A stretch of 29,890 nt of DNA from a virus: the IMG/VR virus record IMGVR_UViG_3300012928_000027, positions 1 through 29,890 of that record; one strand, given 5' to 3'. A model generated the notes under the pieces. The model ran no database searches. It was not told the DNA's origin and worked only from the letters and a program-made list of their open reading frames with translations. Shown in pieces: positions 1-19,012 of the stretch (positions within the stretch are counted from its first letter, which is position 1; every line of letters starts with the position of its first letter). Made by a program: the position numbers and the translations under genes.

Positions 1-197
1 ATTCTGTTTTTGCCGATCAGTTTGCCTGGGATTATGAGAACCCCAAGTTGTATATTGGTAAGAGATCTCTCAAGAATGAATGTGCCATATATAAAAAACT
101 TGGATATGAATATTTTTATCTGGGAGAAGATTCGGATTACAAATCAGAATTGGACGGTTATGAAGTATCGCAATTTTTTAAAGAATGGCAAAACTAA
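1..197 (+). CDS. 3' end of an unassigned protein, possibly GNAT-fold transferase
   Basis: The reading frame is open from the left edge (first full codon at base 3) to the TAA at 195-197, giving 64 visible C-terminal residues; the start lies outside the window. The visible part has the pattern AWDYENPKLYIGKRSL, then KKLGYEYFYLG and YKSELDGYE, ending FFKEWQN. A short helix followed by a strand ending YLG and then a YK-containing stretch resembles the C-terminal half of GNAT-like aminoacyl-protein transferases such as the arginyl/leucyl-transferase family. That resemblance is inferred from motif shape only, and the catalytic N-terminal part cannot be seen. The stop overlaps the next gene by 13 bases, so the two are probably co-translated. 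An ATG-initiated frame at 10-216 is an out-of-frame shadow of this gene. Confidence 0.6.
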   Translation, partial: SVFADQFAWDYENPKLYIGKRSLKNECAIYKKLGYEYFYLGEDSDYKSELDGYEVSQFFKEWQN

Positions 198-841
198 TTG
201 CAAACCTACCAACTAAAAAGGTATGGGTTAGAAAAGAATATCTTCGTGATCTTAAAGATGGCCACGGAGAATACGTAGAAGGTTTATGGGTATGTGCCAA
301 GTCTATTCAAGGACGTGCATTTTATTTTGAAACCTACCTACCAGAATATGGGGCAATGTTTGATAAATTACCAATATCAGCATTCTTATCACGCCCAGAG
401 AAACCAGATCCTGATATGGACATCTATAACCTACAGTTTTGGAACTGTATGGACTATGATTTTACTGTCATTCAGAAGCAATTTGTTGCACCGATGGAAT
501 GGGAAGTGCGTACAAGGCACTTTGGAAACATTAAAGGTACTTACATCTGTACTCTTGATAACTATCACGGTGATTTTGATCAGATTGATGCCTCAACCAG
601 TGAACTACCTGATGAACATAAGTCATTTAACCTGATTGAATTGAGAAATGGGCAGTTTGCACTCTATCCAAACAACAGATGTCGCATTTATGACACCTCG
701 ATGACCCCAGATCCAGTCAAAACACCTGATTTTAAGGTATCAACAAAGATTTTTCAAACTGAAAATGGTGTTGAATGGGGAAGACTAGGTGATTGTGATG
801 ATTATTTCTGGACAACACCTGATGAGAGACAAGAAAAATAA
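185..841 (+). CDS. Conserved hypothetical phage protein, 218 aa
   Basis: The product is a soluble 218-residue protein with no signal peptide or membrane segment. It is rich in aromatic and acidic residues: an N-terminal MAKLIANLPTKKVWVRKEYL, a central FETYLPEYGAMFDKLP and LQFWNCMDYDFTVI, and a C-terminal GRLGDCDDYFWTTPDE. I recall similar uncharacterised proteins next to the structural genes of T4-like cyanophages, but I cannot name a function. The abundance of W/Y/F within short charged stretches suggests a compact beta-rich fold. The start at 185 overlaps the preceding stop by 13 bases, and the end overlaps the next gene by about 20 bases, so it belongs to a tightly coupled small-gene group just before the baseplate block. 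Only a weak AAAG precedes the ATG. Reality of the gene is secure from length and context; function is unknown. Confidence 0.85.
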   Translation: MAKLIANLPTKKVWVRKEYLRDLKDGHGEYVEGLWVCAKSIQGRAFYFETYLPEYGAMFDKLPISAFLSRPEKPDPDMDIYNLQFWNCMDYDFTVIQKQFVAPMEWEVRTRHFGNIKGTYICTLDNYHGDFDQIDASTSELPDEHKSFNLIELRNGQFALYPNNRCRIYDTSMTPDPVKTPDFKVSTKIFQTENGVEWGRLGDCDDYFWTTPDERQEK

Positions 842-1890: not shown

Positions 1891-3753
1891 ATGCCTTTTA
1901 CTAAGTTTACTAACCTAGATTTTGATCAGATAAAATCTTCCATCAAAGATTATCTCCGTGCAAACAGTGATTTCACGGATTTTGATTTTGATGGGTCGAA
2001 CTTTTCTGTTCTGATCGACACGCTTGCATATAACACATATATTACTGCGTTCAACTCAAATATGATTGTTAACGAATCTTTTATAGATTCGGCAACTCTC
2101 AGAGAGAACGTGGTTTCTCTTGCTAGAAACGTTGGATATGTTCCAAGATCGAAAACTGCAGCAAAAGCGACTGTTTCCTTTAATGTGTCGACAACACAGG
2201 CATCAGGACAGGCAATTTTAAAAGCAGGACTTGTATGTGTTGGACCAGTTGATAATACAGATTATACATTTTCAATTCCAGAAGATGTTACTGTTAATGT
2301 ATCAAGCAACGTAGCATCATTTGTTGATTTAGAGATTTTTCAGGGAATATATTTAACTAAAGAGTTTACTGTAGATACATCAACAAATCAGAGATTTATT
2401 TTAAACAACCCTAATATTGATACGAGTACCATTAAAGTTAAAATTGGAACTCGTGAATATAAAATGGTTGATAATATCATTACCGTTAATAGTGATTCTG
2501 AAATTTATCTTTTACAAGAAATTCCAGATGAAAGATATGAACTTCTTTTCGGTGATGGAATAATTGGTAAAAAACTGAGTGATGGTGATGTCATAAAAAT
2601 CAGTTATATTACAACTGATGGTTTGGTTGGTAATGGACCTGCCACATTTTCATATGCAGGGACAACAGTTGATGCTAATGGAGTTCTAATTACGCCTCAG
2701 GCAGGCGTTAGTGTTGTAACTTCCTCAGCTGCCGCTGGAGGCGGCGATATTGAACCTATTGAGTCCATTAAGTACTATGCACCTAGAGTGTACTCATCGC
2801 AGTACCGTGCCGTTACAACAAGGGATTATGAGGCATTGGTACAGCAGGTATATCCCCCAACCGAATCTGTTTCCGTTATTGGCGGTGAAGAATTAAATCC
2901 ACCACAGTTTGGAAAGGTTTTAATTAGTATTAAACCAAAAAGTGGAGTGTCTATCTCTGACTTCCATAAGAATCAAATCTTAAACGATCTCAAGCAATAT
3001 ACTGTATCTGGTATTTCTCAGGAGATTATTGATCTTAAACTACTATATGTTGAGATTGATAGTGATGTCTTTTATGATTCATCCAGAACGAATTCACCAA
3101 ATGATCTCAAAACAAGTGTTACAAGTTCTTTAGAAACATATTCTAAGACTGTTGATTTAAACAAGTTTGGTGGAAGATTCAAGTATAGTAAAGTTCTTCA
3201 AATAATTGATGGTGTTGATACTGCTATCACCTCAAATATTACAAGAGTAAGGATGAGAAGGAATCTTAACTGTATTAAGAATACCTTTGCCCAATATGAA
3301 CTATGCTTTGGTAATAAATTCTATAAGAGAATCGACGGTTACAACATTAAGAGTACTGGATTCAAAGTTGCTGATGATCCAGACACCGTGTTCTTTGTAG
3401 ACGTACCATCTGCAGATAGCGATATTGGTATTCTTTCTATCGTCAAACCAACGTTAGATCCAGAAACTTTTGAGGTTGTTAAGAAGTCAATTGGTACAGT
3501 TGATTATACAAACGGGGAAGTAATTGTTAATACAATTAATATTATTGAAACTGATCTTCCCAATGGGGTAATTGAAATTCAGGCATTCCCAGATTCCAAT
3601 GATGTCATTGGTTTAAAGGACTTGTACTTGGTTTTTGACACTAACAAAAGCACTATAAATATGGTTAAAGACACTATAGCTTCTGGAGAGCAAATCTCCG
3701 GAGTTAATTTCCCAGTAAGGTCTAGTTATTCTAACGGAAAATTAACACGATAA
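1891..3753 (+). CDS. gp6: Baseplate wedge subunit gp6
   Basis: The 620-residue product is close to T4 gp6 (660 aa). Its N-terminus carries the gp6 hallmark: DFTDFDFDGSNFSVLIDTLAYNTY, followed by FNSNMIVNESFIDSATLREN and ARNVGYVPRSKTAA. Around residues 297-350 is the baseplate-J-like stretch APRVYSSQYRAVTTRDYEAL leading to the FGKVLISIKPKSG strand. gp6 forms the dimeric clamp linking neighbouring wedges around the tail tube and holds gp25 and gp7. An AGAGG at 1874-1878 could serve as a distant ribosome-binding site, overlapping the end of gp25. The final part is more variable (residues 520-600). A perfect TATAAATA lies inside the last 100 bases of this gene and may promote the giant gene downstream. 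Family assignment is secure. Confidence 0.95.
   Translation: MPFTKFTNLDFDQIKSSIKDYLRANSDFTDFDFDGSNFSVLIDTLAYNTYITAFNSNMIVNESFIDSATLRENVVSLARNVGYVPRSKTAAKATVSFNVSTTQASGQAILKAGLVCVGPVDNTDYTFSIPEDVTVNVSSNVASFVDLEIFQGIYLTKEFTVDTSTNQRFILNNPNIDTSTIKVKIGTREYKMVDNIITVNSDSEIYLLQEIPDERYELLFGDGIIGKKLSDGDVIKISYITTDGLVGNGPATFSYAGTTVDANGVLITPQAGVSVVTSSAAAGGGDIEPIESIKYYAPRVYSSQYRAVTTRDYEALVQQVYPPTESVSVIGGEELNPPQFGKVLISIKPKSGVSISDFHKNQILNDLKQYTVSGISQEIIDLKLLYVEIDSDVFYDSSRTNSPNDLKTSVTSSLETYSKTVDLNKFGGRFKYSKVLQIIDGVDTAITSNITRVRMRRNLNCIKNTFAQYELCFGNKFYKRIDGYNIKSTGFKVADDPDTVFFVDVPSADSDIGILSIVKPTLDPETFEVVKKSIGTVDYTNGEVIVNTINIIETDLPNGVIEIQAFPDSNDVIGLKDLYLVFDTNKSTINMVKDTIASGEQISGVNFPVRSSYSNGKLTR
3654..3661 (+). promoter_or_regulatory. 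Probable internal late promoter for the giant gp7-like gene
   Basis: A perfect TATAAATA lies within the 3' end of gp6, 104 bases upstream of the giant gene's ATG. The same octamer forms the three intergenic late promoters in this window. Its position would allow the 13.7-kb gene to be transcribed independently of gp25 and gp6. Being inside coding sequence (codons for Thr-Ile-Asn-Met) it may be coincidental. Confidence 0.5.
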
Positions 3754-3765: not shown

Positions 3766-6700
3766 ATGATTTCAACTGGATTTGAATCTAGGGTAAAGAT
3801 ACAACAGATTGTCGACAATCAGTTACCCGAATTTATATTATCTGAAAGCCCCAAAGCGGTTGACTTTCTGAGGCAGTATTACATATCTCAGGAATTTCAG
3901 GGTGGTCCTGTAGATATTGCTGAGAATTTAGATCAGTATTTAAATCTCAATAACCTTACACAAGAGGTAATTGCTGGATTTACTTCTACTACTAGTGCTA
4001 TATCTACTACAGATACTACTATTAGTGTTGAGACTACTAAGGGATTTCCTAGAGAGTATGGTCTCTTTAAGATTGATGATGAGATTTTCACCTATACTGG
4101 TATAACAACCAATAGTTTCACTGGTTGTGTTCGTGGATTTAGTGGAATTACCACATATTCTAATAATATAAATCCAGAAGAGTTAATATTCTCAACATCT
4201 TCGGCGTCTAATCATGATAGTGTTTCTAAGGTTTCTAACCTCAGTGCATTATTCCTAAAAGAATTTTATCGTAAAATCAAGGTTTTACTCGCTCCAGGAT
4301 TTGAAGATGTTGATTTTGTATCGAATCTGGATGTAAATTCCTTTATAAAGCAGATAAGGAATTTTTATCAAAGTAAAGGTACTGATGAGTCATTTAGAAT
4401 TCTATTCAATGTTCTATACGGCACTACACCTAAGATCCTCAACCTTGAGGAGTTCCTATTAAAACCATCCTCAGCAGAGTATAGAAGAAGACAAACTCTT
4501 ATTACAGAGGTATTAGAGGGAGATCCTAATAAACTACCTGGTCAGATGCTCAAGAGTTCTGATCAGACTGCGGCTGGTCCAATCTCAGAAGTTGAGATTA
4601 TTACAAGAAATCTGAAAACTTTTTATAAGATTCAACTGTTCAGTGGATATAATGAGCAGAGTTTAATTGAGGGTGAGTTTAAGATCACTCCTAGCACAAA
4701 TGCGACCGACGAAGTTTCTGTTGGATCATCAATTATTACTGTTGATTCTACGGTTGGATTTGATACTTCAGGTAAGTTGTTCATTGGTAATGATATTGTA
4801 AGTTATGACAACAAAAATATCAATCAGTTCTTTGGTGTAACTGGTGGGACTGGTATTGGTGTAAGTGTTGGCATCAGCACTGCAGATAGAATTTATGCAG
4901 AGACAACTGTTTTTGGATTTGAAGAAGGAGATCCTAATAATCAAGTCAACTTAAGAGTTACTGGTATTCTATCAGACTTAGAAGAAACTGAAGATTATAC
5001 TCTTTTATTAGAAGAAGATAAGATTCCAGTTAGAAATCTTGGTGAAGAGATTAAGAATAATAATTTAGATAAGAAGCAGTTTGTATTTAATACTTGGCTT
5101 TATAACGTAAGAACAAGATATGAAATTGATTCCTTTTCAAATAATGAAGTAACTCTCTTTGAGGAACCAGATAAGTCAAGTCTTAAAGTTGGCGATCGTG
5201 TTGATATTCTCAATAGGGGTGGTGAAGATTTAGTCCTGGTTAATGTTCAAGTAGACGCAATTTCTGGAACATTAGTAACTCTTGACACAAATATTACTGG
5301 TGTTGCTGCAAACACAAGATTAAGTATTAGAAGAAGATATGAATATGCAGAGTCTTCTCCTCTTGCTTTGAGTGGCGATAGACTGCTTGCCAATGTGCAA
5401 AATGTATACAATGAGGACGATAAGTTCCATTACATGGCATCTAACTCTTTGCCATCGTATCAAATAACAAAAAATATATCTACAGCAGATATTGAAATTA
5501 CAGCAAATTCTAATATAAGTTCTATTTTTGGTGGACAGAGTTCAGTAACGGCATTGTTCACTACATTATCATTTGCAAATGATGTACCATTCATCACTGG
5601 TGACGCAGTAATTTACCATACCACTGCAACTGATGATATTAGTGGACTTGTTTCTGGTAGAACTTATTATGTTGAGTTAGTTGGTAATTCTAAGAATACT
5701 ATAAGACTCTTCAACGCAAGATCATTCATCAATACTACAAAGTATGTTGAGTTTAGAACTTATACAACAGCATCAACACATTCATTCACTTTAAAGCAAC
5801 ATTATAATAAGTCACTCTCATTTAAGCAAGCACTTTCTAAATTCCCAATTGAACCAAATATTCAATCGGGAAATAATAAGAAAACTAAATCTGGACAGAT
5901 TGGTGCTCTTATCAATGGTGTTGAAGTATTAAGTTACAAATCAGATGATTATATTTACTTTGGACCACTTGCAGATGTAAATATATTCAATGGTGGTAGT
6001 GGATATGATGTAATCAATCCACCTACAGTTAAAGTTAATCCACCAACTGCTGGAATCGGAACTACAGCATTAGTTCAGGCAGTGGTTAGAGGATCTTTCT
6101 CAGAAGTTAAAGTTGACCCACAAAACTTCAATATTAACAGAGTTCTCTCCGTAACCGCTAAAGGTGGAAATGGTTCTGGAGCGGAATTAGAAGCTGTCGT
6201 AGTAAGAAAGTTCAGAGAACTACCTTTCAACGCCTCTCAGGTTGGTGTTGCTGCTACTGGTGGCATTGATGTTACTGATGACACTCTCACCTTCACATTA
6301 GAGCATAACTTGGCTAGCGGGCAAGCAATTGTCTATAACCCAAGTGGCAATACGCCTTTAGGTATTGGTTCATTTAAAGGATCTAATGCTGATAGTGGTA
6401 GATCACTCATTAATGGATCAGTTTACTACCCACAAGTAGTAAATACCAAATCTATTTTCCTGTATGAGACTCTTAATGATTACAATGCAGGCATCAATAC
6501 AGTTGGATTTACTACCATCGGAACTGGTGGTATGCACAAGTTCAGAATACTTGAAGAAAAGAATGTAATCTCTGAAATTAAAGTTGTTAAACCTGGTTCT
6601 GGATATGAGAATAGAAAATTAAAAGTTAAACCATCAGGAATATCTACCGTACATAATAAGGTTACTTTTGAAAATCATGGATTTAATGATAAAGATCTAG

Positions 6701-9700
6701 TTCAATATAGTTTTGATGGATCTGCTATTAGTGGTTTATCGACATCAAATCAATATTATGTTCTTAAGATTGATGATAATAATTTCCGTCTTTCTGATGC
6801 TGGATCAGTAAATGTTTCTGCTGCAACCACTGAGTACAATAGAAGAAACTTTATCAAATTTGATTCAACTGGTACTGGATTCCAAAACTTTGCTTTCCCA
6901 CCAGTTACATTAGAAATTAATGCAGAGTATGTTGGTGCTGGAAATACAATTACTGCAACTCCTATAGTTACTGGTGAAATTGTTGATCTATACCTTTATG
7001 ATGAAGGAACTGACTATGGTTCTGATATCTTTAACTTCCATAAGAGACCAATTGTTAAAATTGACTCTGGTAATGGAGCACAATTAAAAGCAATTCTCAG
7101 AGATGGTAGAATAATTGCCGTTGATGTTCAAAATGGTGGTAAAGGGTACACTGCAGCACCTGAACTATCTGTTCGTGGTGTAGGAAATGGTGCTAAGTTA
7201 AGAGCAATCGTTACTGATGGAAAAGTTACTAGCGTAATTATCCTAAACGAAGGTACTAACTATGAGGAGAAATCTACAGTAATCGTTCCTATTTCTCCAG
7301 GAAGAAATTGTGTTATTGAAGCAGATGTAAGAAGACTGGCTGTTAATAACGAGAGTAGGTTTGGTAGCGAAAAGTTAATTGAGTTTGGTGATAATCTTTC
7401 TTATGGTGTAGTTGGATATTCTACTGATAGAGAGGGAGATGCATTCGATGATCCAAATACAGATACTGGACACTCCCCTGTTATTGGTTGGGCATATGAT
7501 GGAAATCCAATCTATGGTCCATATGCATATGAAGATCCTAGTGATGATAACTCCAACATCAGAATTCTAGAAACAGGATATTCTTCAGACCTTTCCAATA
7601 TTAAAAATAGACCTCCCGAAACAGCATTCCCATTAGGTTTCTTTGTTGAAGATCATAAATTTGATGATTCTGGAGATCTTGATATTCATAATGGTAGGTT
7701 TGCAAAAACTCCAGAATTCCCTAATGGAATTTATGCATATTATGTTGGAATAAACAGTGAAGTTGGTTCCAGTGGTGCAATGGATCCTGTCTTCCCATAC
7801 TTCATTGGTGATACCTACAGATCAGAACCTATAACAACTCAACTAGATCAATCATTTGATTTTAATGGATCAACTCTCGTTAGAAATACTTTCCCATATA
7901 GAGTAAGTAAACCTAATTCTGGAAGTGATTTCTTATTGGAATCTAACGAATTCCAAAATCAGGTTTCTGTTGTTGAAAGTGCATCTTCTGGTACTGTTGA
8001 TTCTCTGGGAATCATTAATCCAGGATCAAATTACATGATTGGTAATTCGATTGTGTTTGATAATTCTGGAACAGCAGGTGGCGGGGCAACAGCAGAGGTT
8101 GTTGAAATTGAGGGCAATAATGTTGTAGATATTGAAACTACGTTCTTAAGTTATGAGAATTCGGTAATCATTAGAGAAAGTAGTGATACGGTAAGAGTTC
8201 ATACAAATCAAAAGCATGATCTCATTAACGGAGACAGAATTCAAATAGGTTCTGCAACTACTTTTGTTTCTGGATTGGTTGATAATCATATCATTGGTGT
8301 TGGAACTGCAACTGGAAGTCTATCAATTGCAATTGAATCAAATAGTGGTGTTACTAGCGACATCTACCCAACCTCAGTATCTCCTCGCATTGCTCCAGGA
8401 ACAACCATTGGAATTGGAACAGAACTTCTTACGGTACTGAATATATTTGACAATGTATTGAGAGTTAAGAGAGAAGATCAAGGAATTGCACATGCAATTG
8501 GATCTACAATCACATACTATGAAGATTCATTCACCATACCATTAGAAACAGAGAATTTTGAATCATTTAAGAACTTCAAGACCTACTTCAATCCAGTAGA
8601 ATCAGTTGGTATTGGAACTACTAGTGGATTTGAATACAGTCAGGATATTAGTGTTGGTGTTTCACCAAAATCTATTTCTCTTCCACATCAAGCAATTTAT
8701 ATTCCAAATCATAGATTTAAGACAGGACAAAAACTGGTCATTAACAAACCTACTTCTACAAATTCACTTACCGTTGCAATAACCTCAACTAGTAACACAT
8801 TCAATCTACCAAAGAGTGGTTTGACTGAAGATGTTTATGTTGTAAACAAAGGAAAGGATTTCATTGGTATTGTAACTCAGGTTGGTCTTACAACTAATAG
8901 TGGTGGGTTATTCTTCCCAACATCAACAGCATCTGATAACTATGAATACTATTTTGAGACTCAGGAAAGTAGTTTAACAGCAACAGCAAAAGAAATTATC
9001 ACAACAGTATCAATTTCTACAGTTCATGGACTTGAATTTGGTGACAAAATTAGTTTGGATGTAGTTCCAAATCTAACCCTTGGGCAGTATGGAGAATCTG
9101 ACACTTATTCTGGAAGAAGGCAATTATCTGAAATTGCTATTAAGTATGATTCTAATTTTGATAAGATTCTAATCAATCCAATCGGATTTAGTTCTTCTTC
9201 TGTAAGCACTACAAATAATACTCTAGGATTGGGTAGTCATGGTTTGGTTACTGGTGATAAAGTATTCTATAGTGCAACGGATGATGTTGCTGCTGGTTTA
9301 ACCACTGGTCCATATTATGTGTTTAGAAAAGATGATGCTAATATTCAACTTGCTGAAACAGAAATTGACGTTTTTGCAAATCCACCAACTATCGTAAGTA
9401 TTGGTTCTACTGGTGGTGCTAATCAAGAACTCAGTATGATCAATCCAAGGATTGATGTTACTAACAATAATACAGTATTCTTTGATGTTTCTGATTCATC
9501 TCTTGATGATTACAATTTAAAACTATACTATGATGCCGATTTAGCAAATGAATTTGTATCTAGTGGATCTACATCAGAATTTTCTTTTGAAACACTGGTA
9601 ACTAGCGCAGGTATTGCTACATCACATCAGATTAAATTTGGAAATAATCTGCCAACAAAACTTTTCTATACTTTAGAAAAGGATGGAGTAGATATCAAAC

Positions 9701-12700
9701 CAGATACCGATGTGGTAGATAATTCTCAGATTCTATACAGAGACAGTCGTTATAATAAAGATTATACTGTTTTTGGTATTGGATCAACTACTTTCTCAGT
9801 TTCGTTATCAGAAATTCCAGAAAAATTAAAATATACTCAAGATCAGTGTAAGACATTGAAGTATAGAACTACTTCAAAAAATGCTAAAGGTCCTATCAGC
9901 AAACTGAATATCCTTTATGGTGGATCAGAGTATAAGAAACTTCCAAGAGCAGTTGGAATTGTAACAGGAACAGCAATTGGTTGTGGTGAAAACGGAGTTA
10001 TTCGTCCTGATACGAATACAATCGGAAAACTTAATAGATTTAGAATTATTAATGAAGGATTTGAATATCCAATTGATAGAACTCTTCGCCCACAAGCAGA
10101 AATTCCATCACTGATTAGACTTTCTGGTTCCTTTAAGATTACTAACGTTGAGGTTATTAGTGGCGGTAAAAACTACCTTTCTGCCCCAGATGTTACCATC
10201 GTTAACATGTACACCAGAAAACCAGAAGCTTCTGGTACTCTTCAACTAACATCATCTTTCGATGGAAATACTATTATTAGTATTGATGTTTTAGATGAAC
10301 CAAAGGGTCTTGAAAATGTTGAGCATAGAATATTTACCGAAAGAAATAGTAATGGTATTTCTGTTGAGAAGATTGTTAGTTATAACAAATCTACTGGTAT
10401 CGTTGAACTTGAACTAACAACCCCACCAATTGGTGGATTTACTGAAGCACCATTTGAAGCAGGTGATAAGATCTTTGTTGAGGGTCTTATTAAGAAAGTT
10501 GTAACTTCTAATCTAGGTGTTGTTTCATCTCCAGGAAATGGATTCAATTCCAAAGATAATGATTATCAATTCTTTGAAGTTACTCAATTTATTAATTCTA
10601 ACCCAGCAGTTCTTAAGTATAACGTTGGAGAATTTACAGCAGACGCTGGTGATATTGAAGGAACTGGATCTACATTTGGTATTCAGAATCAATTCACTCA
10701 AATCATCAATAAGAAGAATTATCCAGTATTTGCATTAACATTAGAACCAAGTTTGTTCTTCATGTCAGAATCACTGAAGGTGAATGGTGTTGATAGTAAT
10801 TTAGTTGTTCAATCAACCTATGCCGACTTTATTAAAGTTCTTGGTGATTATCCCGTAAAAGAAGGCGATATACTTCTTGGCACCCTCTCTGGTGTTTCTG
10901 CTACGGTAAATGTTCTGGACACCAATACTGGCAGATATAAAATTTCTGCGGTTAATAAAGTTCGTTTTGGATGGGCAGATGATGTTGGAATGCTGAACAA
11001 TGACCTACAGGTCATGGGAAATAATGATTACTACCAGAATCTTTCATATACAATTAAGAGTCCACAAACTTGGGAAGAAATTAGAGACTTTGTTAATAAG
11101 ATGGTTCATCCCACAGGGATGAAGAATTTTGCTGATCTAGAGATTTTATCTGAAGCAAATGCTGGTGCCAATGTTGGTGACGATGCTTTTGTTTCTCCTG
11201 TACTAGATTTTGTTTCTGAAAGAAGAGTTGATACAATCAATACCTTTGATTTAGTTCTTGATTATGATCCAACCGTAGATTCATCTAGATTTATTCTTTT
11301 CCAGAATAAGAGATTGACTGATTATGTTGAATGTAGAACTAATAGAGTTCTACAAATTGATGATATTAGCGGACAGTTCTCAAGTTCTGAATTCAACAGA
11401 GATACATTTGTTGCTGCTGTAGAATATCCAATCACTAATTTCTATGGTAAATTCCTTGTTCAAGTTATTGATGATGAAAAAAGTAGTAGTCAATTAACTG
11501 AAGTTGTTGTTCTGAACGATTTTGACAACACCTACACGTTAGATAGAGCAACTCTGTTTACCGATGTAAAACTAGGAGACTTTAGTGGAACATTTGCAGA
11601 TAGTGGAGATCCATCACTCAGATTTGATCCTGATGATCCAAATGACTTTAACTACAATTTAAAAATCTACACTGATAACTTTGATGTTGCAAACGTTAAT
11701 GTTGGAACAGGATTTACCGATTTTGGATTTGGACGTATCAATGCAAAAGTTGAAACAGTTGGACCATCATCTGGTAATGGAATCTTAGGACCTTCTACAT
11801 CTGTATTTGAAGCACTTGCAAACCAATTTGACACATTCTATTCATATGCTCATGTTATAGATCTGGGAACAAACGCACAAGACTACTTTGAGATCGCAGC
11901 ACATAAAGATTCTGCAGATAATACCTTTACATCAGAACTATTCTTTGATACATCAAATACTAGTGTTTCTGGTTCTGGTATTGGAACATTCACAACGGTA
12001 GTTGAAAATGGTATTCTTAAATTAAATTATACTAATGAAAACAGTCCTAATAATGTTGCTGTAAGAGTAAAAACCGTTGGTATTGGATCTACTGCTGCTG
12101 GTATTGGAACTTTCAGATACTTAGTTGATGGTCAATTACCAGGGACTGAAAGAACTGCTAAGTTTGGAACATCATTTGAAAATGTAACTGGAATTGCTAC
12201 AGTTCTCACATATCCAATAGAAACTGAATCTTCTCATAAGGCACTTGTTAAAGTTTCTGCAGGAAGCACGGTCTCACTACACAATCTTTACTTAGTTTCT
12301 GACCAAACAAGAGTTACTCTCGAAGAATCACCATTCTTATCGGTTGGAACTAGCGTTGGTGTTGGTACGTTCTCAACAGAAGTTGATGGAACTAGTGTTA
12401 ATCTAATATTCCATCCAGACACTGCTTTTGCTTCTGATGTAGTTACTGTTCAGTTCTTCAATCAGACAATATATACGGATCAAGATCAGTTCAACTTCCC
12501 AGAAGATTTGGAGTATGGTAATGCTAATGAGAATATCTCTAATGCATTCTATGGTTCTATTAATAACTTCGGTAAGGATAGAACGGCATTCGATCTAAAC
12601 TATAAAGGAATACCAATTTATCAGAAGACATTTAACCCATCTCAAACCACAAATTGGGATAAAGCAACTGGTATATTCAGTATTGCTGACCATTTCTTTG

Positions 12701-15700
12701 AAACGGGTGAAGAACTAATCTACAAGCCATTCTCAACTCTTTCTGGAATTGCAGCAACATCTGTTGGTATTGGCACAACTACAGTAAGTGGAACAGTATT
12801 TACTGGTGATATTATTTCAGGATTCTCAACTATTACTGGTGTTTCTGCTGCAAGCACTTCATTGATCTTGTTGAACTCAGATGTTCTTGGATCAGGAATT
12901 GCAGCAAATACAACTGTAACAGGTATTGGAACTACAAATACTTTCTTTGTTGGTAATGTAGTTGCTGCTGGATCTTCTGTTATCACAGGTGTTGCAAATA
13001 CTGGTTTAATAAAAGTTGGATCTGGTATTTTCTCTGGTAATAATGTTGGAGTTGGAACAGTTGTTTCTGTTGGACTTAATTCTGTTACTTCTACAGAAGT
13101 AATTACTGGCGGTAACGATAGAATTTACTTTAGTGATGACATTAATTATGGTATTACAATCTCCAATGTAGGATCTGCTACAACATTCAGACAAACATAT
13201 ACAACTGGTATATCAACCGATATTATGCCAGAGAAAGTTTATGCTATTCGTGTATCGAAGGATAAGTTTAAACTTACTGGAACTGCTGGTGGAAGTGGAA
13301 TTGGATTCACATTTACAAGTGAAGGTTCTGGCAATCGCCATAAGTTGACGATGAAGAAGAAGTTGGAGAAGGCACTAATCACAGTTGATGGTGTTTCACA
13401 ATATCCTATCGCATTTACACCACTTTCGTTTGACTTAGATCAGAACACTACTGGTGGAAATGGAACTATTGGTGCTGGTGTAACATTCTTGAGACTATCT
13501 GGTATTTCATCTGTAAGACCAAGAGATATTCTAAAAATTGATGATGAGTTCCTCAATATTACTAACGTTGGATTAGCAACAACTGCAACTGGACCAATTA
13601 CTGGAATTGGAACAATCCCAGTTGTAAATGTAACTAGAGGATATGTTGGAACATCTGCAACTACACATACTGATGGTAGTAGTGTAAGAGTTTTCAAGGG
13701 ATCATTCAATATTGTTGAGAATAAGATTCACTTCACTGAAGCACCAGATGGTAAGGGTGATAATGATAAACTGAACGCAAGTCAACTATCTCTTCCAAAA
13801 TCTACCTTCAATGGTAGAGTATATCTACGCCAAGATTATACTGGAAATAGAGTTTATGATGACATCTCCCTAGGATTTAATGGAATTGGTAGAACATTCA
13901 GTGTATTCAATGAAGGAGAAAATGCTATAGGACTTGAGGCAGGAAGCAATATTGTATTCATTAACGATATCTTCCAAACTCCAAATACAACAAATAATAG
14001 TGGAAATAACTATGGATTTGAAGAATCTGCAGGAATCTCCAGTATAACGTTTACTGGAATTAAAGTTCCTGGAACAGATAGTATTCTAACTGTTGATTCC
14101 GATGTTAATCAGAATCAAATTCCAAGAGGTGGCGTTATTATTTCAGTTGCTTCTACTGGTGGATTGGGATATGCACCTTTAGTTGGTGCTCAAATTGATG
14201 CAGAAATCGGTGCTGGTAAATCAATCTCCAATATTGTTGGTATTCCAACTTATGGCAGAAAGGTTTATTCAATCAGTACTGCATCTTATGACAACGTTAC
14301 TGGTGTTCTTGAGATTACAACAGATGGCAACCATGGATTTATTGGACTGGATCAAAGAGCATTCCTTGAAAATCTAGAGTTCTCTTGTGCAGCACCGCAT
14401 GCTGGTGTTACCACAACAACATTCCCAGATAGTACACAAGGATTTGATTATCCAATCCTAGGAATTACTTCAGGAACTACATTTAGAACAAATGTTGGTG
14501 TTTCTACAATTCCTCACACATTTGTTGGATTTGGTTCAGTTCGTGAATATTTCAATAATAACAGACACAACTTTGGTTCTGGTTATAGAGGACAAGTTGG
14601 AGTTGCTGTTACTGATGAAATTTATGTACATAAGTTTGTAAGAGCAGCAGCAAATTCTGTTACTGGCACTGGTGGGCCATTCACTCCAACGAATGCTGTT
14701 TATGATTCGCTTGCTGGTACTCTTACCCTAACAATTCCATCACATGGAAGATCAAGCGGTAATGTACAACTAGTTCAGGATGCATTTGTATTCACCTGCT
14801 CCAGAGATAATCATAGAACTGAGCACACATATCCAAGAGCAACAGACCCCGCAGGAGGCAATGTAAACGTTGCAATTACTGTAATCGATGCCAATACTAT
14901 ATCAGTTCCTGTTGGTGTTGGTGGAGGCGCTGGTACAGGTGCTGTAATTACTGCTGAGGTTGTTGCTAATACACAAAGATTTGAATCTGCATCTGCAAAT
15001 GCAATCAATGTACAAAGTGGTTCTGAAAGTGGAAATGAAAAGACACCGATTACTGGTACAACATATGATCCAGAAACTGGAATTCTGAATATTACAGTAA
15101 CTGGTCATGGACTATCAACAAATGACACGATCACAATTGATGCTGGATCACTGGTATTCAGTTGTGCTAGGGATAACTTCCAAACACTACATCCATATCC
15201 TCGCGCAGGAAAAGATCCTATTGCTGGTGTAACTACTGCAGTTACAGTTGTTGACGCAGATAACTTCACTATCAATGCTGGACATTCTCCAGCACATACT
15301 GGTGGTTCGTTGTTCTTTACAATTACTGATGGTGGTTCTAATTATGTAAACCCAATTATTAGTGTTGACGATCCATCTTATGAAAATCTTAGATTCACTG
15401 GTATATCCAGATTGGGTCTTGGAAATACATCAACAACTGGTATTGGTTTATCAATGACTTTTGATCTTGCACCAAACAGCAGCACTGTTGGTATTGGAAC
15501 AAGTATGTTTGAAGTTAAGGAATATACCATCACAAAACCAGGTTATTCCTTCAGATTGAATGATGTATTTGAACCAGTTGGATTGGTTACTGACTACAGA
15601 TTAATTGATGTAATTGATCCTATTACATTCACGGTAACCGAAGTATTCTCAGATTCATTCTCATCTATTCAACTTGGTGAATTTGATTACATTGATAGTA

Positions 15701-17424
15701 TTGCAAATCTTCAAGATGGTAATAGAAAGAGATTCCCACTATTCTTCAATAATCAACTACTAAGTTTCCAGAAAGACATTTCTGATGTAACATCATCACT
15801 AATCGATTTTGATACTATTCTCCTAATTTATGTAAACGGTGTAATGCAGGAACCAAAAGTTTCCTACACCTTTGAGGGTGGTACTACATTCAGATTCAGT
15901 GAAGCACCCAAGAAAGATGATAAAATTGACATCTTCTTCTACAGAGGAACTAGAGCTGTTGATAGTGTGCAGGTTGATGTTCCTGAAACTATCAAACCAG
16001 GTGATAATCTCCACATTCTCAAGAATGATGGTAACTCAACTACTGTTAGCCAGACACCAAGAATTGTAAGTAGCATTCTTTCTTCTGATATTGTTGAAAC
16101 AGGAATTTATCTTGGTGATGGTATTGATGAAAACAACTTCAAACCTGTTGATTGGTCTAAGCAAAAGAGAGATCTCTTCATTAATGATTTAGTTGAATCT
16201 AAAGCAAGAGATTCTATTGAAGGTATGGTTTTCCCAACCGCAAAAGTTATTAAGAACTTCCTGAGTACAGATGAAGAAATCTTCGTAGATGATGCACAAT
16301 TCTTCAACTATGAAGAAAATGAATCTACTGTTGAGATTCAATCAGTTAATGGTTTGTTAATTGTTGATCGCCAAGATCCAGTTGGTGCTGGTTTATCCGC
16401 AACAGTTTCTGGACTTGGAACCATTTCTTCAATTGATGTTCTCAGTGGTGGTAGTGGATATACACCTAACTCAACTGTAACATTAAGAATTGGAAAACCA
16501 GTTGGTGGTATTGGAACAGTATTTAAGGCAGACATTATTGATAGAGTTGGAACTCTGGGTATTGGATCTGATGTAATTATCGGAATTAGTACAGAATCAC
16601 TAGAGATCGGTCAAACAATAAAAGAAATTCCTAATATCTTCGATACATCCACAACAATCATTGGACTTGCTGGTACAGATGGTGGCAACATTACTCTCAG
16701 CAAATCTGCATCAAATACTGCAGAACTTGTAAATGGATTTGAGTTTGGTAGATATCAAGATCAAGAACTCGCAGAAGCAACTGCTTCGGTTAATTCATCT
16801 GGTATCGTAACTCTCACTTCAGTTACAACTGTTGGTGCTGGATATACTGGGGATACGCTACCTGCGGTTATTGCACCTCTTCCAAATATGCAATCAGAAT
16901 TAATTTCTGGAATCAGATTTGTTGATGGATTTGCAGGTATTATTACTGGAATTGGAACAACTGCTGGTACTGGCGGCAATTCACTGGCACTCAGATTTGA
17001 TATTGCATTCGACGCCAATACAAACTTTGAATCTTTACAAGTTGGATATCCAATTAAGGTTACTCAAACTGGCATTGGAAATGGTATTACATCAATTGAC
17101 GGTCAAGATAGTTCTACTGTTGGTATTGGATCAACCTTTGTTGACAATATATACTATGTACATGCGATTTCCAAGGACGCATTTACCGGTATTATTACCA
17201 GTAACATTCTTTCTACAACTAGCAACGTTGTTGCAATCTCAAGTGATTTTGCTGGAAGATTCTCCTGGGGTAGATTGGCAGGATTTACAAGATCCTCTGG
17301 ATCAATCTCAATCGCTGTTACTGGATTAAATGTTGATTCTGGACTATCAACATTCCCATCTTTCCAAAGACGTGGATTTGGACTGAGAGACATTGGTGCT
17401 CTCAGAAAAGAGTTTCCCAGTTAA
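3766..17424 (+). CDS. gp7: Giant gp7-like baseplate wedge protein, 4552 aa
   Basis: This is one uninterrupted frame between gp6 and gp8, the slot of T4 gene 7 (1032 aa), so it is over four times the T4 length. The conserved core includes PKAVDFLRQYY near residue 30, FYQSKGTDESFRILFNVLYG at 199-218, and WEEIRDFVNKMVHPTGMKNF near 2436-2456. Between and after these lie beta-rich modules: GxGY repeats (about 730-1130), HG-x-x-GD...YYV modules (about 600, 845, 970, 1815), a YHYH-type domain (about 1220-1352), a low-complexity solenoid-like stretch (about 2985-3120), and three cysteine/YPR repeats (Cys 3541, 3678, 3800). Next is a conserved C-terminal segment (about 3965-4190) with IYVNGVMQEP and GTRAVDSVQ. 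The end reads FQRRGFGLRDIGALRKEFPS. gp7 in T4 is the wedge scaffold with gp6 and binds gp10. The wedge role is inferred from position and core motifs; the extra modules probably reach the virion surface. No signal peptide or catalytic site is certain. Confidence 0.75.
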   Translation: MISTGFESRVKIQQIVDNQLPEFILSESPKAVDFLRQYYISQEFQGGPVDIAENLDQYLNLNNLTQEVIAGFTSTTSAISTTDTTISVETTKGFPREYGLFKIDDEIFTYTGITTNSFTGCVRGFSGITTYSNNINPEELIFSTSSASNHDSVSKVSNLSALFLKEFYRKIKVLLAPGFEDVDFVSNLDVNSFIKQIRNFYQSKGTDESFRILFNVLYGTTPKILNLEEFLLKPSSAEYRRRQTLITEVLEGDPNKLPGQMLKSSDQTAAGPISEVEIITRNLKTFYKIQLFSGYNEQSLIEGEFKITPSTNATDEVSVGSSIITVDSTVGFDTSGKLFIGNDIVSYDNKNINQFFGVTGGTGIGVSVGISTADRIYAETTVFGFEEGDPNNQVNLRVTGILSDLEETEDYTLLLEEDKIPVRNLGEEIKNNNLDKKQFVFNTWLYNVRTRYEIDSFSNNEVTLFEEPDKSSLKVGDRVDILNRGGEDLVLVNVQVDAISGTLVTLDTNITGVAANTRLSIRRRYEYAESSPLALSGDRLLANVQNVYNEDDKFHYMASNSLPSYQITKNISTADIEITANSNISSIFGGQSSVTALFTTLSFANDVPFITGDAVIYHTTATDDISGLVSGRTYYVELVGNSKNTIRLFNARSFINTTKYVEFRTYTTASTHSFTLKQHYNKSLSFKQALSKFPIEPNIQSGNNKKTKSGQIGALINGVEVLSYKSDDYIYFGPLADVNIFNGGSGYDVINPPTVKVNPPTAGIGTTALVQAVVRGSFSEVKVDPQNFNINRVLSVTAKGGNGSGAELEAVVVRKFRELPFNASQVGVAATGGIDVTDDTLTFTLEHNLASGQAIVYNPSGNTPLGIGSFKGSNADSGRSLINGSVYYPQVVNTKSIFLYETLNDYNAGINTVGFTTIGTGGMHKFRILEEKNVISEIKVVKPGSGYENRKLKVKPSGISTVHNKVTFENHGFNDKDLVQYSFDGSAISGLSTSNQYYVLKIDDNNFRLSDAGSVNVSAATTEYNRRNFIKFDSTGTGFQNFAFPPVTLEINAEYVGAGNTITATPIVTGEIVDLYLYDEGTDYGSDIFNFHKRPIVKIDSGNGAQLKAILRDGRIIAVDVQNGGKGYTAAPELSVRGVGNGAKLRAIVTDGKVTSVIILNEGTNYEEKSTVIVPISPGRNCVIEADVRRLAVNNESRFGSEKLIEFGDNLSYGVVGYSTDREGDAFDDPNTDTGHSPVIGWAYDGNPIYGPYAYEDPSDDNSNIRILETGYSSDLSNIKNRPPETAFPLGFFVEDHKFDDSGDLDIHNGRFAKTPEFPNGIYAYYVGINSEVGSSGAMDPVFPYFIGDTYRSEPITTQLDQSFDFNGSTLVRNTFPYRVSKPNSGSDFLLESNEFQNQVSVVESASSGTVDSLGIINPGSNYMIGNSIVFDNSGTAGGGATAEVVEIEGNNVVDIETTFLSYENSVIIRESSDTVRVHTNQKHDLINGDRIQIGSATTFVSGLVDNHIIGVGTATGSLSIAIESNSGVTSDIYPTSVSPRIAPGTTIGIGTELLTVLNIFDNVLRVKREDQGIAHAIGSTITYYEDSFTIPLETENFESFKNFKTYFNPVESVGIGTTSGFEYSQDISVGVSPKSISLPHQAIYIPNHRFKTGQKLVINKPTSTNSLTVAITSTSNTFNLPKSGLTEDVYVVNKGKDFIGIVTQVGLTTNSGGLFFPTSTASDNYEYYFETQESSLTATAKEIITTVSISTVHGLEFGDKISLDVVPNLTLGQYGESDTYSGRRQLSEIAIKYDSNFDKILINPIGFSSSSVSTTNNTLGLGSHGLVTGDKVFYSATDDVAAGLTTGPYYVFRKDDANIQLAETEIDVFANPPTIVSIGSTGGANQELSMINPRIDVTNNNTVFFDVSDSSLDDYNLKLYYDADLANEFVSSGSTSEFSFETLVTSAGIATSHQIKFGNNLPTKLFYTLEKDGVDIKPDTDVVDNSQILYRDSRYNKDYTVFGIGSTTFSVSLSEIPEKLKYTQDQCKTLKYRTTSKNAKGPISKLNILYGGSEYKKLPRAVGIVTGTAIGCGENGVIRPDTNTIGKLNRFRIINEGFEYPIDRTLRPQAEIPSLIRLSGSFKITNVEVISGGKNYLSAPDVTIVNMYTRKPEASGTLQLTSSFDGNTIISIDVLDEPKGLENVEHRIFTERNSNGISVEKIVSYNKSTGIVELELTTPPIGGFTEAPFEAGDKIFVEGLIKKVVTSNLGVVSSPGNGFNSKDNDYQFFEVTQFINSNPAVLKYNVGEFTADAGDIEGTGSTFGIQNQFTQIINKKNYPVFALTLEPSLFFMSESLKVNGVDSNLVVQSTYADFIKVLGDYPVKEGDILLGTLSGVSATVNVLDTNTGRYKISAVNKVRFGWADDVGMLNNDLQVMGNNDYYQNLSYTIKSPQTWEEIRDFVNKMVHPTGMKNFADLEILSEANAGANVGDDAFVSPVLDFVSERRVDTINTFDLVLDYDPTVDSSRFILFQNKRLTDYVECRTNRVLQIDDISGQFSSSEFNRDTFVAAVEYPITNFYGKFLVQVIDDEKSSSQLTEVVVLNDFDNTYTLDRATLFTDVKLGDFSGTFADSGDPSLRFDPDDPNDFNYNLKIYTDNFDVANVNVGTGFTDFGFGRINAKVETVGPSSGNGILGPSTSVFEALANQFDTFYSYAHVIDLGTNAQDYFEIAAHKDSADNTFTSELFFDTSNTSVSGSGIGTFTTVVENGILKLNYTNENSPNNVAVRVKTVGIGSTAAGIGTFRYLVDGQLPGTERTAKFGTSFENVTGIATVLTYPIETESSHKALVKVSAGSTVSLHNLYLVSDQTRVTLEESPFLSVGTSVGVGTFSTEVDGTSVNLIFHPDTAFASDVVTVQFFNQTIYTDQDQFNFPEDLEYGNANENISNAFYGSINNFGKDRTAFDLNYKGIPIYQKTFNPSQTTNWDKATGIFSIADHFFETGEELIYKPFSTLSGIAATSVGIGTTTVSGTVFTGDIISGFSTITGVSAASTSLILLNSDVLGSGIAANTTVTGIGTTNTFFVGNVVAAGSSVITGVANTGLIKVGSGIFSGNNVGVGTVVSVGLNSVTSTEVITGGNDRIYFSDDINYGITISNVGSATTFRQTYTTGISTDIMPEKVYAIRVSKDKFKLTGTAGGSGIGFTFTSEGSGNRHKLTMKKKLEKALITVDGVSQYPIAFTPLSFDLDQNTTGGNGTIGAGVTFLRLSGISSVRPRDILKIDDEFLNITNVGLATTATGPITGIGTIPVVNVTRGYVGTSATTHTDGSSVRVFKGSFNIVENKIHFTEAPDGKGDNDKLNASQLSLPKSTFNGRVYLRQDYTGNRVYDDISLGFNGIGRTFSVFNEGENAIGLEAGSNIVFINDIFQTPNTTNNSGNNYGFEESAGISSITFTGIKVPGTDSILTVDSDVNQNQIPRGGVIISVASTGGLGYAPLVGAQIDAEIGAGKSISNIVGIPTYGRKVYSISTASYDNVTGVLEITTDGNHGFIGLDQRAFLENLEFSCAAPHAGVTTTTFPDSTQGFDYPILGITSGTTFRTNVGVSTIPHTFVGFGSVREYFNNNRHNFGSGYRGQVGVAVTDEIYVHKFVRAAANSVTGTGGPFTPTNAVYDSLAGTLTLTIPSHGRSSGNVQLVQDAFVFTCSRDNHRTEHTYPRATDPAGGNVNVAITVIDANTISVPVGVGGGAGTGAVITAEVVANTQRFESASANAINVQSGSESGNEKTPITGTTYDPETGILNITVTGHGLSTNDTITIDAGSLVFSCARDNFQTLHPYPRAGKDPIAGVTTAVTVVDADNFTINAGHSPAHTGGSLFFTITDGGSNYVNPIISVDDPSYENLRFTGISRLGLGNTSTTGIGLSMTFDLAPNSSTVGIGTSMFEVKEYTITKPGYSFRLNDVFEPVGLVTDYRLIDVIDPITFTVTEVFSDSFSSIQLGEFDYIDSIANLQDGNRKRFPLFFNNQLLSFQKDISDVTSSLIDFDTILLIYVNGVMQEPKVSYTFEGGTTFRFSEAPKKDDKIDIFFYRGTRAVDSVQVDVPETIKPGDNLHILKNDGNSTTVSQTPRIVSSILSSDIVETGIYLGDGIDENNFKPVDWSKQKRDLFINDLVESKARDSIEGMVFPTAKVIKNFLSTDEEIFVDDAQFFNYEENESTVEIQSVNGLLIVDRQDPVGAGLSATVSGLGTISSIDVLSGGSGYTPNSTVTLRIGKPVGGIGTVFKADIIDRVGTLGIGSDVIIGISTESLEIGQTIKEIPNIFDTSTTIIGLAGTDGGNITLSKSASNTAELVNGFEFGRYQDQELAEATASVNSSGIVTLTSVTTVGAGYTGDTLPAVIAPLPNMQSELISGIRFVDGFAGIITGIGTTAGTGGNSLALRFDIAFDANTNFESLQVGYPIKVTQTGIGNGITSIDGQDSSTVGIGSTFVDNIYYVHAISKDAFTGIITSNILSTTSNVVAISSDFAGRFSWGRLAGFTRSSGSISIAVTGLNVDSGLSTFPSFQRRGFGLRDIGALRKEFPS
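7424..7821 (+). other. YHYH-type domain inside the gp7-like protein
   Basis: Residues about 1220-1352 of the giant protein read like a complete YHYH domain: HSPVIGWAYDGNPIYGPY from residue 1236, then ILETGYSS, GFFVEDHKFDDSGDLDIHNG, RFAKTPEFPNGIYAYYV, and PVFPYFIGDTY near 1342. The known family is found in secreted or surface bacterial and algal proteins and as an insert in some phage structural proteins, and its biochemical role is unsettled. The order and spacing of the glycine/proline/aromatic motifs match what I know of the family. Flanking segments are ordinary tail beta modules, so this looks like an inserted cassette. Confidence 0.8.
14269..15300 (+). repeat. Three successive Cys/YPR repeats in the gp7-like protein
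   Basis: Three related units are visible. Each opens with YD-x(2-3)-G-x-L-x-I/L-T followed by an HG turn, then a V/L-F-x-C strand (FSCAAPH, FTCSRDNH, FSCARDNF) with Cys 3541, 3678 and 3800, a (T/H)-x-Y-P-R-A-x-x-DP segment, and a V-x-D-A-N/D strand. Spacing of the cysteines is 137 and 122 residues. Unit 1 is the most divergent (FPDSTQGFDYP in place of YPRA..DP). I recall comparable units in other marine phage tail proteins; their function is not known to me. Confidence 0.75.
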
Positions 17425-17452: not shown

Positions 17453-19012
17453 ATGGCTGCCATTGTCACAGATCAGTTTAGAATATTAAACGCAGGTAAT
17501 TTTGTTGATTCGGTTAGTGATCCGAATAATTCCTATTATGTTTTCTTGAGTCTTCCTAATCCAGGTATTGTTGGATTTGGTCGTTCAGATACTTGGGATT
17601 CAAATACTCCTGCGCCCGTTGATAACCTGAATTATCTGTCTCACGTAAAAGACACGATGATTTTTGGTAAAAAAATCACGAAAAAAGATATTCGTAGACT
17701 GGTTAGGAGAATAGATTGGAAAGAAGGAACTGTATATGAAATGTACAGGCACGATTATAGTGTCACCAATCCATCACCCCAAACAAACTCTGCTAGATTA
17801 TATGATGCAAATTACTATGTAATGAATAGTGATTTCAGAGTTTATATCTGTATTGAAAACGGATCATCTTCAGTGAACGTATCTGGCAATTTCTCACAAG
17901 ATGAACCAACATTCGTAGATCTAGAACCATCTAGAGCAGGTGAAAGTGGTGATGGTTATATTTGGAAGTATTTGTTCACTGTTGCTCCCAGTGATATCAT
18001 TAAGTTTGACTCTATTGAATATATTCCTGTTCCCAATGATTGGGAAGATAGTACTGATACACAAATCATTTCAATGAGAGAGAATGGTGATTCTCTTCTA
18101 AATGAAAATCAAATTAAAACTGTATACATTGAGAACCAGGGATCTGGATATAATACAACTGAAGCAGAATTAGACATTCTAGGTGATGGAACGGGTGGTA
18201 GAGTTGTTGTTGATGTAACAGGTGGAAAAATTACAGATGTTACCGTTTCATCTGGTGGAAAAAATTATTCTTATGGAAGAATTGATCTTTCTACTATCAA
18301 TTCGGGTTCAACTGGATTTGCAAATCTAATACCAATTATTCCTCCTGCTAGAGGACATGGATATAACATCTATGAAGAATTGGGTACAGATCGTGTTTTA
18401 GTATATGCTCGTTTTGATGATTCTACTAGAGATTTCCCACTAGACACAAGATTTGCTCAGATTGGCATTATTAAGAATCCAACTCAAGTTGGTTCTGCTA
18501 CTACAATTTTTAGTGAGAATAAATTCTCTAATCTCAAAGGTTTGAAGTTGACCTCTGTTGCAACACCAACAGATGCAATTCCAGGAAATCAAATTTTCCA
18601 AACTGTAACTGGTATTGGAACTGCAACTGGTTATATCGCATCATACGATGATGAAACACAAGTTCTGAAGTATTTCCAAGATAGATCACTTTATTTTAAT
18701 AGTGGATCATATGATCAGAAGGATTCTAAGACTGTAAATAGCGAAGCTTTAAAAATTGATTTTAGAGCATCGGGTGGTGGAACAGTTACTTCATCTAATA
18801 GTTTTAGTGGAACTATTGATGGATCATTTACTGGAATTACCACACAGGTTACCTCAGCAAAAAATGTTAATTTGGACGTTCAGTTTACCAATGGCGTTTC
18901 CTCTCCTGAGATAAATAAAGGATCGGGGGACATAATCTATTTGGATAATAGACCTCGTGTTTCGCGAAACCCACGACAAAAAGAAGATATTAAAATAGTA
19001 CTGGAATTCTAA
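17453..19012 (+). CDS. gp8: Baseplate wedge subunit gp8, enlarged
   Basis: The 519-residue protein has the gp8 pattern: N-terminal DQFRILNAGNFVDSV with SYYVFLSLPNP, a WD-x-NTPAPVDNL segment, MIFGKKITKKDIRRLVRRIDW, Y-rich VYEMYRHDYS, YVMNSDFRVYICIENG, and the typical GDGYIWKYLFTVAPSDIIKF. T4 gp8 (334 aa) is a dimer bridging gp10, gp7 and gp6 in the wedge. The excess of roughly 185 residues lies in the C-terminal half. It starts with GxGY beta repeats (IENQGSGYNTTEAEL near 225, VSSGGKNYSYGRIDL near 265) that also occur in the giant gene and the DUF4815 protein, and includes a TGIGTATGYI motif near 388. The late promoter at 17427 precedes it. No clear Shine-Dalgarno is visible before the ATG. 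Confidence 0.9.
   Translation: MAAIVTDQFRILNAGNFVDSVSDPNNSYYVFLSLPNPGIVGFGRSDTWDSNTPAPVDNLNYLSHVKDTMIFGKKITKKDIRRLVRRIDWKEGTVYEMYRHDYSVTNPSPQTNSARLYDANYYVMNSDFRVYICIENGSSSVNVSGNFSQDEPTFVDLEPSRAGESGDGYIWKYLFTVAPSDIIKFDSIEYIPVPNDWEDSTDTQIISMRENGDSLLNENQIKTVYIENQGSGYNTTEAELDILGDGTGGRVVVDVTGGKITDVTVSSGGKNYSYGRIDLSTINSGSTGFANLIPIIPPARGHGYNIYEELGTDRVLVYARFDDSTRDFPLDTRFAQIGIIKNPTQVGSATTIFSENKFSNLKGLKLTSVATPTDAIPGNQIFQTVTGIGTATGYIASYDDETQVLKYFQDRSLYFNSGSYDQKDSKTVNSEALKIDFRASGGGTVTSSNSFSGTIDGSFTGITTQVTSAKNVNLDVQFTNGVSSPEINKGSGDIIYLDNRPRVSRNPRQKEDIKIVLEF
18910..18917 (+). promoter_or_regulatory. Possible internal late promoter GATAAATA
   Basis: GATAAATA within the gp8 coding region, 99 bases upstream of the 2357-aa gene, fits the NATAAATA pattern but not the perfect TATAAATA. 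Its distance from the next ATG parallels the internal site 104 bases before the giant gp7-like gene. Weak evidence. Confidence 0.3.

What the first reader, a model, noticed from the sequence alone, without database searches (positions are those of the whole stretch)
7424..7821. YHYH-type domain inserted in a baseplate wedge protein
The HSPVIGWAYDGNPIYGPY, LDIHNGRFAKTPEFPNG and PVFPYFIG segments appear in the family order at about 1220-1352. A domain family known mainly from extracellular proteins, placed in a phage baseplate, could bind metal, glycan or the host outer surface. It is the clearest candidate in the giant protein for a non-scaffold function.
Basis: partly seen in the sequence, partly recalled or inferred. 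Interest (0 to 1): 0.6.

Follow-up and report, generated by a model that had tools for sequence, protein, structure and literature searches.

The report
Histidine-less YHYH domain in phage baseplate
A giant tail-baseplate protein of a marine cyanophage-like virus carries a shortened YHYH domain that has lost the histidines the family is named for; the same domain sits in essentially every sequenced marine cyanomyophage, so it is a real but ordinary fixed part of the baseplate rather than a special insertion.

Summary
Residues 1231-1330 of the 4552-aa ORF (window 7456-7755) match Pfam YHYH (PF14240) at E 1.5e-23, 84 bits against a cut-off of 25. The three quoted segments are present and in order. 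The match covers only profile positions 88-183 of 193: the N-terminal half, with the eponymous YHYH motif, is missing.

Bacterial YHYH proteins sampled here conserve four histidines (H-V-Q-P, the two of YHYH, and GxYHYY). In 93 gp7-type phage copies none is kept; the last is always alanine. The core WAYDGNPIYG / GDLDxxNGR / TPExPxGxYAY is nearly invariant.

It is not an occasional insert. The domain was found in all 49 long-enough gp7 ORFs fetched by their N-terminus. The domain and the gp7 N-terminus each match 463 phage records with an almost identical make-up, nearly all marine cyanomyophages. Some also carry complete YHYH proteins, and other gp7 branches keep a relic, GGEYAH. The series suggests decay of an ancestral YHYH domain inside gp7.

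YHYH domains in cyanophage and jumbo-phage tails are published, with a proposed zinc hydrolase function; this copy lacks the family's histidines. Most likely it is a fixed structural module of the wedge. A constant glycan or calcium-binding role is not excluded.

The parts
3766..17424 (+). Giant gp7-slot baseplate wedge protein, 4552 aa
   Evidence: PHROG 2885 'baseplate wedge subunit' 3446 bits over residues 2-3055; order gp25-gp6-gp7-gp8 as in P-SSM2; Pfam Baseplate_wedge PF23786 only sub-threshold, 17.1 against 27
7456..7755 (+). YHYH domain core, residues 1231-1330, profile positions 88-183 of 193
   Evidence: PF14240 E 1.5e-23; same place by the genome search
7471..7524 (+). HSPVIGWAYDGNPIYGPY; D1245, P1248, Y1250 shared with bacterial members; H1236 shared with complete phage copies but not with the bacterial set
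7678..7728 (+). LDIHNGRFAKTPEFPNG; D1306, N1309, R1311, T1315 conserved
7732..7740 (+). Y1323-A1324-Y1325; bacterial members have YHY here, gp7 copies have Ala in 93 of 93
7786..7893 (+). PVFPYFIG..TYRSEP..LDQSFDFNGSTLVRNT, C-terminal continuation conserved among gp7 copies
7348..7470 (+). Residues 1195-1235, short replacement for the family's N-terminal half; 1198-1200 (RFG) is where profile alignment puts HYH
   Evidence: hhalign A1 against A2, low confidence in this stretch
7108..7335 (+). Two GxGY beta-repeat units (residues 1115-1190) directly upstream of the domain
   Evidence: repeat profile; AlphaFold pLDDT about 94 over much of this stretch
7975..8112 (+). Weak further GxGY unit downstream (residues 1404-1449)
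   Evidence: E 0.011

Best explanation
The domain is a genuine but shortened member of the YHYH family that has lost the family's histidines, domesticated long ago as a fixed folded module of the giant gp7 baseplate wedge protein of marine cyanomyophages. It sits after a run of GxGY beta-repeats and most likely works as a rigid structural or interface element of the wedge. The Asp/Asn/Arg core is kept because it holds the fold together, and possibly a constant ligand such as calcium. It is unlikely to be a zinc hydrolase or a variable receptor binder. Shown: homology, truncation, histidine loss, universality, synteny. Inferred: the structural role.
For: PF14240 match covers only profile 88-183. 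Profile-profile match to complete YHYH domains: probability 100, E 3.4e-40. Four histidines are conserved in 41 bacterial sequences (41/41, 41/41, 41/41, 40/41); gp7 copies do not keep them, and 0 of 138 gp7-set copies have an HxH nearby. Domain present in 49 of 49 N-terminus-fetched long gp7 ORFs and 124 of 124 in the wider set. 463 phage records match the domain and 463 match the gp7 N-terminus, with the same counts per organism name apart from one odd record each. 25 of 122 domain positions are invariant among 33 relatives, against 150 of 3000 overall. Both AlphaFold models show the same order of strands in the core.
Against: Polar residues D1245, D1296, D1306, N1309 and R1311 are kept as strictly as in bacterial members, which could mean a retained binding or catalytic site. 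H1236 is conserved in 87 of 93 copies. No direct evidence shows where the domain lies in the baseplate. The comparison of the two 463-record sets was by counts, not accession by accession.
Confidence: 0.55

Rival explanations
1. Constant glycan or calcium-dependent surface-binding module: the domain binds an invariant part of the cyanobacterial envelope (LPS core, peptidoglycan) through its conserved Asp/Asn/Arg/Tyr core.
For: Strict conservation of polar and aromatic positions across phage and bacterial members; a complete YHYH domain occurs in a phage protein that also has a sub-threshold depolymerase-like region; a published listing among carbohydrate-binding and host-recognition domains (PMC7029224).
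Against: No ligand evidence; no solved relative to compare; host-recognition parts usually vary between phages, this one is fixed.
Confidence: 0.25
2. Tail-associated zinc-dependent hydrolase, as proposed for YHYH domains in jumbo phages.
For: Published prediction of a His triad plus Asp (PMC7824862); complete YHYH copies with the motif exist in some cyanophages.
Against: All four family histidines are missing in this copy and its gp7 relatives; only one strongly conserved His (H1236) lies in the domain core; complete phage copies also show lost motifs such as YHYR, YFYD, YSYR.
Confidence: 0.07
3. A recent insertion of a host or foreign domain into one phage's baseplate gene.
For: The family is otherwise known from bacterial proteins.
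Against: No gp7 ORF without the domain was found; the domain diverges along with the rest of gp7.
Confidence: 0.02

Closest known systems
gp7 / baseplate wedge initiator of marine cyanomyophages (P-SSM2 gp7 YP_214343.1, S-T4 AXQ70596.1)
   Same: Same gene order, giant size, same shortened YHYH domain without the motif near residue 1200
   Different: 45-50% identity over the domain; the window contig is a separate, unnamed virus
Pfam PF14240 YHYH, bacterial proteins (e.g. Deinococcus WP_239051980.1)
   Same: Core DGxPxY, GDLDxxNGR, TPExPxGxYxY
   Different: Bacterial members sampled are small proteins with the N-terminal half, YHYH motif and a fourth His; here all are missing
Complete YHYH proteins of cyanophages next to gp7 (e.g. 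588-aa AIX36491.1 of ACG-2014d)
   Same: Same core including HSKIIG; found in the same genomes as motif-less gp7 copies
   Different: Keep the N-terminal half and often GEYHYHSG; separate proteins
gp7 of the ACG-2014d / P-RSM1 branch
   Same: YHYH core in the same giant protein
   Different: Longer N-terminal part with relic GGEYAH; profile match from position 22

Membership tests
YHYH (PF14240) | Profile score above curated cut-off | tested here: met
   84.2 bits against 25
YHYH (PF14240) | Full-length domain | tested here: not met
   Positions 88-183 of 193 only; a shortened homologue, not a complete member
YHYH (PF14240) | Eponymous YHYH motif | tested here: not met
   No HxH in the whole 4552-aa protein; absent in the gp7 set
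YHYH (PF14240) | Conserved core Asp/Asn/Arg/Tyr | tested here: met
   29 positions at least 90% conserved in both sets
Proposed zinc hydrolase (Iyer et al. 2021) | Three conserved His and an Asp as metal ligands | tested here: not met
   Family His absent; the passage read does not name the residues, so the triad is taken to be among the four conserved His
Proposed zinc hydrolase (Iyer et al. 2021) | Catalytic activity | not testable with these tools
   Needs the purified protein
gp7-type baseplate wedge | Sequence family and gene order gp25-gp6-gp7-gp8 | tested here: met
   PHROG 2885 and neighbours
gp7-type baseplate wedge | Presence in the virion baseplate | not testable with these tools
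   No proteomics or cryo-EM for this virus

The most novel reading that the evidence does not exclude
The shortened YHYH core in gp7 is a constant binding module of unsolved fold, used by nearly all marine cyanomyophages to hold calcium or an invariant envelope glycan, and derived from an extracellular bacterial-type YHYH protein by loss of its histidine site.
Probability: 0.2. Interest if true: 0.5.

Novelty: new member of a known kind. Interest (0 to 1): 0.3.

Why it matters
YHYH domains in phage tails have been proposed to be zinc hydrolases. The copy fixed in gp7 lacks the family's histidines, so that proposal should not be carried over to it; within cyanophages only some stand-alone copies keep the motif. 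Neither AlphaFold model resembles any solved structure, so a structure of either form would be informative.

Tried and rejected
Solved relatives by sequence: single-sequence search gave only chance topoisomerase matches (E 0.25 or worse); profile searches gave none. Solved relatives by fold: no PDB match at E 0.001 or better for either model. A bacterial-type YHYH query in viral contigs found no relative. Empty-site comparison was planned but no gp7 without the domain was found. The cyanophage A-1(L) tail structure was checked in the literature: no mention of YHYH, and its gp7 is a neck protein.

Full report
Observation. ORF 3766-17424 (+, 4552 aa) contains the three quoted segments at residues 1236, 1305 and 1341. 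Pfam YHYH matches residues 1231-1330 with E 1.5e-23, well over the cut-off, but only profile positions 88-183 of 193. A profile of bacterial members alone scores the domain 89.8 bits; the best of 1000 shuffles scores 6.5. So the domain is real and far above chance, but partial.

Context. The window is a 29,890-base IMG/VR virus record. Gene order is gp25 (1488-1889), gp6 (1891-3753), the giant protein, gp8 (17453-19012) and a 2357-aa protein with a DUF4815 match. This is the order in Prochlorococcus phage P-SSM2, whose gp7 is 5195 aa. The giant protein matches PHROG 2885 'baseplate wedge subunit' with 3446 bits. The Pfam Baseplate_wedge model is only sub-threshold.

Not an insert. A search with the gp7 N-terminus fetched loci without regard to the domain: all 49 whose ORF runs on at least 1630 aa have it, as do 124 of 124 in the wider set, starting mostly near residue 1184-1250. 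Most of that wider set was fetched through the domain itself, so the 49 are the unbiased count. Among annotated phages, 463 records match the domain and 463 the N-terminus, with 372 Synechococcus, 61 Cyanophage, 24 Prochlorococcus and 5 Marine records in each set, and one unrelated name each. I compared counts, not each accession.

Loss of the histidines. In 85 bacterial YHYH sequences the core is preceded by HVQPxGxYHYHG. In the 41 used for the structure alignment, H97, H105 and H107 (numbering of L264) are 41/41 and the column of A233 is His in 40/41. In 24 complete phage copies these columns are His in 12, 14, 12 and 0. In 93 gp7 copies the position matching 233 is Ala in all, and no column of residues 1195-1235 has His in 20% or more. 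No HxH occurs anywhere in the window protein and none near 138 gp7-set copies. The bacterial sample came from one query, a Deinococcus protein, so it may represent one subfamily.

What is kept. 29 positions are at least 90% conserved in both phage and bacterial sets, including D1245, P1248, Y1250, D1296, D1306, N1309, R1311, Y1323 and Y1325. Among 33 gp7 relatives, 25 of 122 domain positions are invariant against 150 of 3000 overall, binomial P 1.7e-9; neighbouring positions are not independent, so this is indicative only. The N-terminal part of gp7 is more conserved still.

A series of decay. Some cyanophages carry complete YHYH proteins, most of them 284-596 aa, with the motif YHYH; 20 loci hold both such a copy and a motif-less one. 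Other complete copies have YHYR, YFYD or YSYR instead. gp7 of the ACG-2014d and P-RSM1 branch keeps a relic such as GGEYAHFTNP aligned with NGAYHYHGMPE and the ACG-2014d copy matches more of the profile. In the branch of the window, P-SSM2 and S-T4 even the relic is gone. Profile-profile comparison confirms homology of gp7 and complete forms (probability 100, E 3.4e-40). The direction of change is inferred, not tested with a rooted tree.

Structure. AlphaFold gives pLDDT about 84-91 for most of the window core and pTM 0.83 for a complete phage copy, with matching order of strands in the core. Neither model has a PDB match at E 0.001 or better. Viral predicted structures matched include cyanophage structural proteins and proteins named as YHYH domain-containing. 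Upstream of the domain lie GxGY beta-repeats, with a weak further unit downstream.

Literature. Iyer et al. 2021 (PMC7824862) note YHYH domains fused to tail and baseplate proteins of jumbo phages and predict a zinc hydrolase. Zaragoza-Solas et al. 2020 (PMC7029224) list them among carbohydrate-binding and host-recognition domains in myophages of SAR11 and cyanobacteria. I found no paper that reports the loss of the histidines in the gp7 form, within the open-licence library searched.

Verdict. A structural role is the most likely; a constant binding role remains open.

Noticed in passing
L246:2689-4452 (KJ019121.1, ACG-2014d): A 588-aa protein between gp7 and gp9 joins a complete YHYH domain to a C-terminal region with a sub-threshold match to a polyhydroxyalkanoate depolymerase model (E 6e-6, 25.9 bits against a cut-off of 150) and a GTSNGG motif.
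   Followed up: partly
window 17453-19012: gp8 shares a GxGY repeat stretch (residues 214-272) with gp7 residues 1109-1166, 37% identity, E 7e-7.
   Followed up: partly
BFVD hits A0A5B8IDC5, A0A5J6VJS1: Structure search against viral models returned YHYH-named proteins of giant viruses (Mimiviridae sp. ChoanoV1, Megaviridae environmental sample).
   Followed up: no
window 185-841: ORF matches PHROG 3704, described as ferredoxin in the auxiliary-metabolism category, E 1.1e-105, but no Pfam family above cut-off and no NCBIfam family.
   Followed up: no
KJ019121.1 (W03; locus L247): ACG-2014d carries four YHYH profile matches in three proteins: gp7, the 588-aa protein and an 1154-aa reading frame in which the match is split in two.
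   Followed up: no
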